The position numbers were made by a program, and so were the translations under genes. Of a stretch of 64,000 bases of DNA, positions 24,171 through 28,732 are shown in pieces. The stretch spans positions 2,618,136 through 2,682,135 of the forward strand of contig NZ_FNLF01000002.1 in NCBI RefSeq assembly GCF_900103175.1. Reading direction: 5' to 3'. The notes beneath the pieces are model-generated. The model saw only the letters and a program-made list of their open reading frames with translations, was not told where the DNA came from and searched no databases. The stretch comes from Tsukamurella pulmonis (GTDB taxonomy: Bacteria; Actinomycetota; Actinomycetes; Mycobacteriales; Mycobacteriaceae). Position 1 is the stretch's first letter. Every line of letters begins with the position of its first letter.

Positions 24171-25817
24171 GTGTCGATCAATCCCACTCCGTCGCCGGCT
24201 CCCGCCGAGCGCGGCACGGCCGATCCGGGCCCCCGCGATCTCGAGCGCGGCCCCGGACCCGGCCGGCGCGGAGATGCAGCTCAGGACGGCACTTCCGCGC
24301 CTGATCCCCGCGATCCCGGGCGCCGCCCCGCCGGTCCTCGCGGCCGCGATTTCGACACCGAGGACGGCGATCCGGGCCCCCGCGACCTGGGCCGCGAACC
24401 GGGCCCCGGCGGCGGACCGCAGTTGTCGAACGTGTGGGTTTACAAAGGCCGCGCCTACGATCTCTCGGAATGGATCAACAAGCATCCGGGCGGGGAATTC
24501 TTCATCGGCCGATCGAAGAATCGTGACATCACGTCGATCATCGGGTCGTATCACGCGAATCCCGAGAAGGTCGAGAAGATGCTCGAACGTTTCGCCCTTG
24601 ATCGCGACGCGCGGGTCGAGGATGTGCACCCGAAGAACAACGCTCCGGCATTCCTGTTCAAGGACGGCTTCGACAGTTGGCGCGATACTCCGCGCTATCG
24701 GTTCGACGACCCGAAGGATCTGCTGCACGCCGTGAAGGCGCGACTGCGCGATCCCGCGACGAAGGCGCGCATCACGCGTATGGACCGCTGGTTCGACATC
24801 GTCGCGGCGGCGCTGGCGATCGCGTACGTCGTAGTCATCGCGACCAGGCTCGGCGTCCCGTCGTGGATGCCGATCTGGCTGTTCGTGCTGCTCATGGTGA
24901 TCCTGCGCAGCTCCTTGGCGGGCTTCGGCCACTACGCGATCCATCGCGCGCAGAAGGGCGCGACGAAGGTGCTGGTGAACGCCTTCGACATCAACTACGT
25001 CGCGCTGTCGTTCGTCACCGCCGACGGCCATGCGCTGCTGCACCACCCGCACACGCAGAGCGAGGTGGACATCAAGAAGAACGTCTTCACCATGATGATG
25101 GACATCCCGCGCTGGTACCGGATCCCGATCCACACGCTGCACAAGTTCGGGCACACGGCCACGGGCATGACGATGCGCCTGTTCGAGATCGTCAGGCTCA
25201 CGCGGCAGGTGGGCGTGGCCGACATGTACGGCTCGCTGCGCGGCGCGCTCCCCCACTTCATCGGTGCCTTCGCCATGCGCGCGCTGCTCATCGGCGAGTT
25301 CCTCCTGTTCCTGTTCCTCGGCGACGTGTGGGCCTGGGTCGCGCAGTTCGTCGCGGTGCTCTGGGTGAGCACCTTCCTGGTGGTCGCGAGCCACGACTTC
25401 GAGACCGACGTCGACGAGCTCCCCGAGGTCGAGACCGAGGACTGGGCGGTCAACCAGCTCCACCAGGCCTACGACCTGTGGATCTCGGGCAACCGGTACG
25501 TCGACTGCTTCCTCTCCGCTGGCCTGTCCAGCCACCGCGTGCACCACGTCCTGCCGTACCAGCGCAGCGGCTTCGCCAACATCGCGACCGAGGAACTGAT
25601 GGCAGAGGAGGCGGCGAAGTTCGGCGTCGAGTGGCTGCCGCGCCGCAGTTTCGTCTTCGACCGCCTGCCGGACCAGGTCCGCACGTTCCTCGGCAGCAAG
25701 GCCCGGCCCGCGCAGGAGCAGGGCCACGGCTTCTTCCGCGAGCACTTCTCGCCCCAGGCGCTCAAGACCTCGGGCTCGTACGTCGTCGCCGGCTTCACCG
25801 GCATCGGCACGGTGTAA
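24171..25817 (+). CDS. Cytochrome b5-fused membrane fatty-acid desaturase/hydroxylase
   Basis: A 548-residue protein. Residues 1-82 are disordered and Pro/Gly/Arg/Asp-rich, with two copies of a DPGPRDL-type unit (about 18-31 and 67-80). Residues 85-165 form a cytochrome b5-like heme domain, VWVYKGRAYDLSEWINKHPGG, with the axial His in HPGG. The rest is a di-iron membrane domain with His boxes GHYAIH, DGHALLHHPHT and SSHRVHHV, and four or more membrane helices. Front-end desaturases and some fatty-acyl hydroxylases have this layout. The GTG at 24171 is chosen because AGGAGGA lies 8-13 nt upstream. It leads the operon with the type III PKS. Confidence 0.82.
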   Translation: MSINPTPSPAPAERGTADPGPRDLERGPGPGRRGDAAQDGTSAPDPRDPGRRPAGPRGRDFDTEDGDPGPRDLGREPGPGGGPQLSNVWVYKGRAYDLSEWINKHPGGEFFIGRSKNRDITSIIGSYHANPEKVEKMLERFALDRDARVEDVHPKNNAPAFLFKDGFDSWRDTPRYRFDDPKDLLHAVKARLRDPATKARITRMDRWFDIVAAALAIAYVVVIATRLGVPSWMPIWLFVLLMVILRSSLAGFGHYAIHRAQKGATKVLVNAFDINYVALSFVTADGHALLHHPHTQSEVDIKKNVFTMMMDIPRWYRIPIHTLHKFGHTATGMTMRLFEIVRLTRQVGVADMYGSLRGALPHFIGAFAMRALLIGEFLLFLFLGDVWAWVAQFVAVLWVSTFLVVASHDFETDVDELPEVETEDWAVNQLHQAYDLWISGNRYVDCFLSAGLSSHRVHHVLPYQRSGFANIATEELMAEEAAKFGVEWLPRRSFVFDRLPDQVRTFLGSKARPAQEQGHGFFREHFSPQALKTSGSYVVAGFTGIGTV

Positions 25818-25827
25818 GGAGATCACC

Positions 25828-27000: not shown

Positions 27001-27007
27001 GCACGCC

Positions 27008-28732
27008 GTGAAACTCCTCAGGTTCCTGCTCTCGATCTCGCCCGCCGCGATCGCCGCGGCCGTCGTCGCCGGCCTGATCGCGGGTGGCGCGAACGCCTAC
27101 CTGCTCACCCTCATCAACGGCCTGGTCGCGCCGGGCCCGATGCCGACGGTGACGATCACCCGGTTCGCCCTGACCGCACTCGTCGTGGTGGTCGCGGGGG
27201 TGGCCTCGCAGCTGATACTGCTGCACCTGGCGCAGGCGGCGGTGTACCGCCTGCGGGCACGGCTCTCGCAGCGCGTCCTGGCCGCGCCGCTCGAGCACAT
27301 CGAGCGGCTCGGCGACCACCGCCTGCTCGCGACGCTCACCGAGGACGTGCGCTCGCTGTCGATGGCCGTCTCCGGGATCCCGGGACTGTGCATCGACCTG
27401 GCCACCATCATCGGCGCGCTGGCCTATCTCGCGACGGTCTCCGGCCCGCTGTTCGCGGTATCGGTGGCGGGCACGCTCGTGGGGATCGCGTGCGTGGAGA
27501 CGGTGCTGCGCCGCGTCCGGGAGACCTATCGCGGGGCCCGCGAGCTCGACGACGCGCTGATCGGCTCGTTCCAGGAGGTCACGCACGGCATCAAGGAGCT
27601 CAAGCTGCACCGCGCCCGGCGCGCGGACTTCCTGGAGCGCTCGCTGCTCGGCACCGCCCAGGACCTGCGCGCCGCGCACGTGTCCGCAGGCACCCGGTTC
27701 GCGGGCGGCCAGGCGCTGGGGCAGGTCCTGCAGCTGGGGACCATGATGCTGATCCTGTTCGTGCTGGCCCGCGCCCTGGAGCTGCCGCGCGAGACGATGA
27801 TCGGATACGTGCTGGTCACGACGTTCCTGTCGATGCCCATGCAGAGCCTCATGCACCGCATCCCCGACCTGCTGCGCGGCGACGTCGCGCTGGCGAAGAT
27901 CCGCGGCCTGGACCTGTCGCTGGAGACCCCGCGCGACGAGTCCGCGCTCCCGCACGACGATCGCCCGCTGTCGGACGGCACCGTCGAACTGCGGGGCGTC
28001 GGCTACGAGTACCTGCCCGAGCCCCCGCCCATGGGCCCCGGCCACCGACCGCCCGGACCGGGCGGGCCCGGAGGCCTCCCGCCGCACCCGCCCCAGGGGC
28101 CACCGCCCGGGGCTCCGCACGGCTTCCGCCTCGGCCCCGTCGACCTGACGCTGCGGCCCGGTGAAGTGACCTTCGTCGTGGGCGGCAACGGCAGCGGCAA
28201 GTCGACGCTGGCGAAGCTGATCTGCGGGCTCTACGCGCCGCGGATCGGTGAGATCCGTGCCGGAGGCGAGCCGATCGGGCCCCACAACACCGAATGGTTC
28301 CGGCAGCACACGACCGCGGTCTTCGCCGACTTCCACCTGTTCGACGACTACCTCGGGCTGTCCGCGGACGACCTGGACCACCGCGTCCGCGGGCTGCTGC
28401 ACGAGCTGGAACTGGCGCACGCGGTGACGGTGCAGGGCGGCCGGCTGTCCACGCTCGCGCTCTCCACCGGGCAGCGCAAACGGCTGGCGCTGCTGACCGC
28501 GCTGCTCGAGGACCGCCCGGTGTACCTGTTCGACGAGTGGGCCGCCGACCAGGACCCGCGGTTCCGCGAGGTCTTCTACGACCGGATCATTCCGGACCTG
28601 ACAGCACGGGGGAAGACAGTGGTCGTCATCACACACGACGACCGGTACTTCGACCGCGCCGACCAGCTGGTGAAACTGGACTTCGGCCAGGTGGTCCCGG
28701 CGTCGGCGACGATCGCGCGCGGAGTAACCTGA
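27008..28732 (+). CDS. Cyclic-peptide/siderophore-type ABC exporter (PvdE/SyrD-like, half transporter)
   Basis: A 574-residue fusion of a membrane domain (about six helices in residues 1-300) and an ATPase. Walker A GGNGSGKST is near residue 394, signature LSTGQRKRLALL near 486, Walker B VYLFDEWAADQDP near 504 and the H-loop THDD near 540. The LSTGQ signature and FDEWAADQDP are typical of the cyclic peptide transporter family. A Pro/Gly-rich insert (about residues 338-375, repeated PPGPGGPGG) interrupts the start of the ATPase. It follows the PKS by 7 nt and probably exports its product or a lipid precursor. Confidence 0.85.
   Translation: MKLLRFLLSISPAAIAAAVVAGLIAGGANAYLLTLINGLVAPGPMPTVTITRFALTALVVVVAGVASQLILLHLAQAAVYRLRARLSQRVLAAPLEHIERLGDHRLLATLTEDVRSLSMAVSGIPGLCIDLATIIGALAYLATVSGPLFAVSVAGTLVGIACVETVLRRVRETYRGARELDDALIGSFQEVTHGIKELKLHRARRADFLERSLLGTAQDLRAAHVSAGTRFAGGQALGQVLQLGTMMLILFVLARALELPRETMIGYVLVTTFLSMPMQSLMHRIPDLLRGDVALAKIRGLDLSLETPRDESALPHDDRPLSDGTVELRGVGYEYLPEPPPMGPGHRPPGPGGPGGLPPHPPQGPPPGAPHGFRLGPVDLTLRPGEVTFVVGGNGSGKSTLAKLICGLYAPRIGEIRAGGEPIGPHNTEWFRQHTTAVFADFHLFDDYLGLSADDLDHRVRGLLHELELAHAVTVQGGRLSTLALSTGQRKRLALLTALLEDRPVYLFDEWAADQDPRFREVFYDRIIPDLTARGKTVVVITHDDRYFDRADQLVKLDFGQVVPASATIARGVT

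What the first reader, a model, noticed from the sequence alone, without database searches (positions are those of the whole stretch)
24171..28732. Compact operon: cytochrome b5-desaturase + type III PKS + cyclic-peptide-type exporter
Three genes with 10- and 7-nt gaps encode an acyl-modifying di-iron enzyme fused to its own electron carrier, a complete type III polyketide synthase and a PvdE/SyrD-like ABC exporter. No additional tailoring genes are needed for a secreted or envelope-placed alkyl-pyrone or phenolic lipid derived from an unsaturated or hydroxylated acyl starter. Type III PKS with an exporter of the cyclic-peptide family is not a pairing I recognise. An LprG-type lipid-carrier lipoprotein is divergent from it across a shared promoter with an inverted repeat, which could add envelope transport.
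Basis: partly seen in the sequence, partly recalled or inferred. Interest (0 to 1): 0.72.

Follow-up and report, generated by a model that had tools for sequence, protein, structure and literature searches.

The report
Lipid-making operon with its own exporter
A Tsukamurella-like genome carries a compact set of genes that look built to make an unusual fatty polyketide, pump it out and carry it to the outer cell envelope; the same set recurs in related bacteria and looks like the ancestral form of a little-understood operon of mycobacteria, in which the pump has been replaced by a sulfate-adding enzyme.

Summary
In detail: a cytochrome b5-desaturase (24171-25817), a type III PKS (25828-27000) and an ABC exporter above the TIGR01194 cut-off (27008-28732), with gaps of 10 and 7 nt. 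The pairing is no oddity of one genome. In 80 named relatives the desaturase lies upstream of the PKS in 80, an exporter downstream in 63, and a lipoprotein of the same family beside them in 76. The lipoprotein is LprF-like, not LprG-like. The core matches the M. tuberculosis rv1371/rv1372(pks18)/rv1373 operon (PMC13141999). What I did not find in print is the swap: 16 of the 17 loci without exporter, all mycobacterial, have a sulfotransferase in its place (the 17th contig ends there), one locus (L086) has both, and quick PKS trees nest the sulfotransferase form inside the exporter form. So the window shows an ancestral-like form. Best reading: synthesis of a long-chain, probably unsaturated alkyl alpha-pyrone, flipped out by the exporter and handed to the LprF-like carrier. 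The product is inferred; no product or expression was tested. New variant of a known kind.

The parts
23107..23928 (-). LprF-like lipid-carrier lipoprotein (LppX_LprAFG), divergent from the operon
   Evidence: PF07161 156 bits, cut-off 24; best solved relative LprF 4qa8 134 bits; lipobox LTGC; neighbour in 76 of 80 relatives
23929..24170 (.). divergent intergenic region; blocks GAAGTATGCA and ATTAGCGT identical in 7 of 7 Tsukamurella-type sequences (window and L032-L037); inverted repeats I1 and I3 not kept
   Evidence: no sigma-70-like match
24171..25817 (+). cytochrome b5-fatty acid desaturase fusion (Rv1371-like by position and annotation)
   Evidence: Pfam; upstream of the PKS in 80 of 80 relatives
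24171..24422 (+). low-complexity Pro/Gly/Asp/Arg-rich N-terminus of the desaturase, residues 1-84
   Evidence: varies among relatives
24432..24593 (+). cytochrome b5 domain, HPGG at residues 105-108, possible second haem ligand His128
   Evidence: His105 and His128 in 71 of 72
24930..25547 (+). three histidine boxes HxxxH (254-258), HxxxHH (287-292), HxxHH (455-459)
   Evidence: all eight His in 72 of 72 aligned sequences; coordinates
25828..27000 (+). type III polyketide synthase of the Pks18 clade; triad Cys167, His305, Asn338
   Evidence: Pfam; 7cb3 485 bits, Pks18 1ted 464 bits
27008..28732 (+). ABC exporter, cyclic-peptide-export family TIGR01194
   Evidence: 389 bits, cut-off 286; downstream of the PKS in 63 of 80 relatives
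28022..28120 (+). Pro/Gly/His-rich insert of the exporter, residues 339-371, before Walker A (28181-28207)
   Evidence: a Pro/Gly/His-rich stretch at this place in 64 of 65 aligned exporters

Best explanation
A dedicated synthesis-and-export locus for a long-chain alkyl polyketide of the mycomembrane envelope, and an ancestral-like form of the mycobacterial pks18 locus. Steps: (1) the membrane di-iron desaturase, fed with electrons by its own cytochrome b5 domain, puts a double bond (or less likely a hydroxyl) into an acyl chain [domains and ligands shown; reaction inferred]; (2) the Pks18-clade enzyme extends a long acyl-CoA with two or three malonyl units to a 4-hydroxy-6-alkyl-2-pyrone [catalytic residues and five of eight listed tunnel residues shown; product inferred from Pks18]; (3) the TIGR01194 exporter moves it across the inner membrane [co-location shown; substrate inferred]; (4) the LprF-like lipoprotein carries it towards the outer layer [co-location shown; role inferred]. 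In the Mycobacterium pks18 lineage the exporter was lost and a sulfotransferase took its place [from gene order and quick trees], so there the product is probably sulfated and leaves by another route [inferred].
For: 80 named relatives: desaturase upstream 80, exporter downstream 63, LprF-like lipoprotein 76. 201 genomes of the family: desaturase core in 29 genomes, 30 places; PKS adjacent at 29 of 30, the 30th at a contig end; exporter over the cut-off in 26 of the 29 genomes, at 27 places, each next to the PKS. 397 genomes of the order: exporter family over its cut-off in 8, in 7 of them next to a PKS at least 53% identical to the window's, which itself occurs in 12 (hypergeometric 2e-11, ignoring kinship). 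Of the 13 such PKS places in that sample 7 have the exporter, 5 the sulfotransferase and 1 neither. Tunnel residues of Pks18 named in PMC6274091: Ser143, Asn208, Ala209, Leu266 and Leu348 kept in the window; Ala52, Cys205 and His221 are Ser. Only the locus lipoprotein, of three LppX_LprAFG proteins found in the genome, has LprF as best solved relative. Sulfotransferase form nested in the exporter form (desaturase tree in line).
Against: No product, expression or transport was measured. TIGR01194 takes its name from cyclic-peptide exporters, and even for PvdE transport has not been shown in vitro (PMC6206403 passages). The structure model of the desaturase failed (mean pLDDT 55; no fold match with E up to 0.001), so desaturation versus hydroxylation is open. 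The desaturase-PKS gap exceeds 60 nt in 35 of 72 loci measured, so one transcript is not certain everywhere. One PKS of this clade (G060) stands alone, and one exporter of the family (G185) stands without the other genes. Trees are quick ones with SH-aLRT support only, with several long branches, one outgroup row (L022) extremely long.
Confidence: 0.66

Rival explanations
1. The product is a phenolic lipid (alkylresorcinol or acylphloroglucinol) and not a pyrone; the rest of the model stays.
For: Another mycobacterial type III PKS, MMAR_2474, makes methylated alkylresorcinols and acylphloroglucinols (PMC5916927 abstract and passages). Single residues can decide between pyrone and resorcinol in ArsB/ArsC (PMC6274091 passages).
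Against: The best named match with a described product is Pks18, an alpha-pyrone synthase, and five of eight of its listed tunnel residues are kept. The top match 7cb3 was not looked up.
Confidence: 0.2
2. The PKS product is a small diffusible signal or antibiotic rather than an envelope lipid; the exporter secretes it into the medium and the lipoprotein is only a neighbour.
For: The exporter family name points to secreted metabolites.
Against: The lipoprotein stays with the locus in 76 of 80 relatives, in both orientations, and is the LprF-type one of three paralogues.
Confidence: 0.15
3. The exporter is a general efflux pump or handles an unrelated peptide and sits here by chance.
For: Broad similarity to MsbA and P-glycoprotein.
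Against: In the order sample the family over its cut-off is nearly confined to this position, 7 of 8 genomes, and the listed matches over the cut-off in the 29 genomes with the desaturase are all at this position.
Confidence: 0.05
4. The desaturase makes an unsaturated acyl chain for general use and the PKS uses ordinary acyl-CoA; the genes share regulation, not a pathway.
For: No reaction was shown for either enzyme in this organism.
Against: In 201 family genomes the desaturase core matched at 30 places only, 29 of them next to the PKS and one at a contig end.
Confidence: 0.1

Closest known systems
M. tuberculosis rv1371/rv1372(pks18)/rv1373 operon, with lprF beside it
   Same: Desaturase followed by a Pks18-type PKS; lprF and Rv1371 flank one intergenic region that captures a repeat (PMC9363015 passages). 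Co-transcribed, predicted to make a lipid (PMC13141999: abstract, Introduction, Results and part 1 of 2 of the Discussion seen).
   Different: Third gene is a sulfotransferase, not an exporter. The main text of that paper has no occurrence of lprF, Rv1368, transporter, export, ABC or Nocardia.
Pks18 (1ted)
   Same: 464 bits, catalytic triad, five of eight listed tunnel residues
   Different: Ala52, Cys205 and His221 of Pks18 are Ser here; product of this enzyme unknown
TIGR01194 exporters (PvdE, SyrD, YojI; that these three belong to the model is recalled)
   Same: Fused membrane and ATPase halves, score above cut-off; PvdE most likely moves an acylated precursor (PMC6206403 passages)
   Different: No peptide synthetase among the neighbours scanned; Pro/Gly/His-rich insert of 20-172 aa near the start of the ATPase domain
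LprF (4qa8)
   Same: LppX_LprAFG family, lipobox, best match
   Different: Divergent orientation here; ligand unknown

Membership tests
Pks18-type alkyl-pyrone synthase | Cys-His-Asn triad | tested here: met
   Cys167/His305/Asn338 aligned to Cys175/His313/Asn346
Pks18-type alkyl-pyrone synthase | long-acyl tunnel residues | tested here: inconclusive
   5 of 8 listed residues identical; the other three are Ser
Pks18-type alkyl-pyrone synthase | makes alkyl alpha-pyrones from long acyl-CoA | not testable with these tools
   needs enzyme assay
rv1371/2/3-type operon | desaturase directly upstream of Pks18-type PKS | tested here: met
rv1371/2/3-type operon | sulfotransferase as third gene | tested here: not met
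   exporter instead; sulfotransferases of L104 and L086 have no match in the window, and that of L104 none in the own genome (an empty answer without a positive control). Rv1373 itself was not compared
TIGR01194 cyclic peptide exporter | score above curated cut-off | tested here: met
   389 against 286 bits
TIGR01194 cyclic peptide exporter | linked to a peptide or lipopeptide pathway | tested here: not met
   immediate neighbours are desaturase, type III PKS, malate synthase and lipoprotein; the rest of the genome was not searched for peptide synthetases
membrane fatty acid desaturase with cytochrome b5 | eight-histidine boxes and HPGG | tested here: met
LprF | closer to LprF than to LprG or LppX | tested here: met
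   LprF 134, LprG 95, LppX 19 bits; LprA has no row in that list
LprF | binds an acylated glycolipid (recalled) | not testable with these tools
   needs ligand analysis

The most novel reading that the evidence does not exclude
The ancestral locus made and exported a pyrone lipid through its own pump and LprF-type carrier. In the mycobacterial line a sulfotransferase was first added behind the exporter (as in L086, where its start overlaps the exporter's stop) and the exporter was then lost. The natural acceptor of the mycobacterial enzyme would then be the hydroxyl of the PKS product, giving a class of sulfated polyketide lipids that I did not find described, and LprF would be the carrier of this lipid.
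Probability: 0.33. Interest if true: 0.82.

Novelty: new variant of a known kind. Interest (0 to 1): 0.62.

Why it matters
Pks18 has a crystal structure and in-vitro products, but its product in the cell, its way out and the role of its operon partners are open; the 2026 operon study could not name the molecule (PMC13141999). The comparison gives a concrete hypothesis for each: a dedicated exporter in the ancestral form, LprF as partner, and the PKS product as the sulfate acceptor. It can be tested in environmental species that keep the exporter, away from pathogens.

Tried and rejected
Rejected: the two strongest inverted repeats as a conserved operator. LprG identity. Loss of the PKS in one Tsukamurella-type genome (G191): its two contigs end inside the locus, so it is an assembly gap. 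Sigma-70 promoter scan: none found; three terminator-like sites, all inside genes, 1.4 expected. Structure of the desaturase from 25 close sequences: low confidence; fold search gave nothing.

Rows dropped or left out: four of 28 desaturase rows whose coordinates reached upstream of the start. In one search the desaturase alignment held 71 of 83 loci plus the window (short frames left out). Exporters under 481 aa were left out of the exporter tree, which kept 62 of 64 relatives, so L091 is not in it; desaturases under 401 aa were left out of their tree, which kept 70 of 83. The rooted PKS tree used 38 of 83 loci, picked by me for spread, plus the window and ten other type III PKS. Gap lengths were measured in 72, 64 and 15 loci. 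The named-relative scan kept the best 80 of 120 hits and is a close-relative search, so its fractions hold for those 80. Some exporters among the 63 are cut by contig ends or split in the record (for example L047, L080, L091, L037). Absence of the sulfotransferase in exporter loci holds for the fetched flanks, up to 10 kb and less at contig ends.

Papers searched for the exporter-PKS pairing or for lprF with this operon. I saw listings with titles and starts of abstracts, and opened five papers in all (PMC13141999, PMC5916927, PMC6274091, PMC9363015, PMC6206403), none whole; nothing seen describes the pairing. The library lacks most subscription papers.
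Full report
What is there. The window lies at G000:C2:2618136-2682135 of a 4.78-Mb genome. Its six closest named relatives at this locus are Tsukamurella (PKS 79-90% identical). The divergent gene 23107-23928 is a LppX_LprAFG lipoprotein; its best solved relative is LprF, while the other two members of the family found in the same genome match LprG best.

Is the grouping real? Yes. In 80 named loci found with the PKS alone, the desaturase is upstream on the same strand in 80, an exporter is downstream in 63, and the lipoprotein lies within 5 kb in 76; of the four without it, three (L047, L092, L100) lie near contig ends and one (L077) is one of two loci in its genome. 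A separate start from the desaturase core in 201 genomes of the family gave 29 genomes and 30 places: PKS adjacent at 29, the other cut by a contig end. The exporter family scored over its cut-off in 26 of those 29 genomes, at 27 places, each beside the PKS; of the other three genomes, G494 has the exporter split into two open frames, G191 ends at a contig end, and G052 has two sulfotransferases instead. In 397 genomes of the order the family passed its cut-off in 8 genomes and in 7 of these lies next to the PKS; the eighth (G185) is 37% identical to the window's exporter and none of the other genes was found in the 16 kb around it.

The swap. The 17 named loci without exporter are all labelled Mycobacterium. 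In 16 a sulfotransferase (Sulfotransfer_1, 148 bits for L104) starts behind the PKS; in the 17th (L105) the contig ends 87 nt after the PKS. Of the 63 exporter loci only L086, Mycolicibacterium arenosum, shows the sulfotransferase in the fetched flanks, behind the exporter, and there, read by eye, the start codon of the sulfotransferase overlaps the exporter's stop. In the order sample, 13 PKS places of this clade have the exporter (7), the sulfotransferase (5) or neither (1, G060). The PKS of the sulfotransferase form in M. gastri matches Pks18 with 670 bits, against 464 for the window's PKS, so Pks18 belongs with that form. No match to that sulfotransferase was found in the window or the own genome.

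Direction of change. In a PKS tree of 84 rows the sulfotransferase form (18 loci plus the cut L105) is one branch with SH-aLRT 99, and presence of the exporter needs one change. With ten other type III PKS added and the tree rooted on nine of them, the 13 sampled sulfotransferase loci form one branch (98) inside the exporter-bearing loci, next to the three mycobacterial loci that still have the exporter. The desaturase tree, unrooted, also gives one branch (16 loci, 99), and the two mycobacterial exporters tested fall together (98). The simplest account is one loss of the exporter in the mycobacterial line, after or with the arrival of the sulfotransferase. These are quick trees, some branches are long, and one outgroup row (L022) is extremely long.

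How it probably works. The desaturase keeps eight histidines in three boxes in 72 of 72 sequences, and the haem-binding histidines of the cytochrome b5 domain in 71 of 72. The PKS keeps the triad and five of eight tunnel residues listed for Pks18. From Pks18 the expected product is a tri- or tetraketide alkyl-pyrone on a C6-C20 chain (PMC6274091 passages). PvdE, of the same exporter family as I recall, most likely moves an acylated precursor (PMC6206403 passages), which makes an acylated polyketide a reasonable cargo. The lipoprotein family is one of lipid carriers (general knowledge). None of these steps has been tested here beyond sequence.

What is known and what is not. The rv1371/2/3 operon is co-transcribed; lipid profiles of the BCG knockout differ slightly from complemented strains, the molecule was not identified, and TLC bands that differ were seen in samples enriched for negatively charged lipids (PMC13141999, abstract and Results). 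The last point fits a sulfated product but does not show it. The main text does not mention lprF, a transporter, export or Nocardia. Nine library searches listed no paper that, by title and start of abstract, describes the exporter form or links lprF to this operon's function, with the limits of that library. I did not have the Rv1373 sequence; that the mycobacterial sulfotransferases here are its kin rests on position, order and family.

An unexplained feature. 64 of 65 aligned exporters (window included) carry a stretch with at least 60% Pro, Gly and His in 30 residues at the same place before Walker A; the exception, L037, is split in the record. The segment is 20-172 aa long, median 82, and holds DVNG in 48 of 65. 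The only other exporter of the family over the cut-off in the order sample does not exceed 0.47 in any 30 residues, and 3 of 19 sulfotransferases reach 0.6. Its role is unknown; a docking segment for the partner enzymes is a guess.

Invariant promoter block shortened to GAAGTATGCA; inverted repeats tested pair by pair; insert count set to 64 of 65; sulfotransferase absence tested in window and genome; repeat mark of PMC9363015 looked up.

Noticed in passing
window 28022-28120 and the same place in relatives: Pro/Gly/His-rich insert near the start of the ATPase domain of the exporter in 64 of 65 aligned exporters, with DVNG in 48; similar stretches in 3 of 19 mycobacterial sulfotransferases at this locus.
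   Followed up: partly
L038 (Kitasatospora arboriphila record): This locus groups within Williamsia on the PKS tree; the record may be mislabelled or contaminated, or the locus transferred.
   Followed up: no
L100 (Acidobacteriaceae metagenome bin): A 4.6-kb contig with the exporter form groups with Tsukamurella sp. 8F, probably a mis-binned contig.
   Followed up: no
L102, L108, L111, L119: Two sulfotransferase genes in tandem behind the PKS.
   Followed up: no
L077 and L109; L115 and L116: Two copies of the locus in one genome: Antrihabitans stalactiti with two exporter forms, G207 with one form each. No lipoprotein was found in the 18 kb around the exporter copy of G207 (L115).
   Followed up: partly
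window 28761-30962: Malate synthase G begins about 41 nt after the exporter if its start is the ATG at 28774 (read by eye); it lies behind the operon in 6 of 6 closest Tsukamurella loci and matched in no other of the 111 loci searched. It may share the transcript; not tested.
   Followed up: partly
window 19497-22412: FecCD permease, ATPase and periplasmic binding protein of a siderophore/cobalamin/F420-type importer upstream.
   Followed up: no
L113 (G060): A PKS of this clade, 54% identical, that stands without any of the partner genes in the fetched 14 kb.
   Followed up: no
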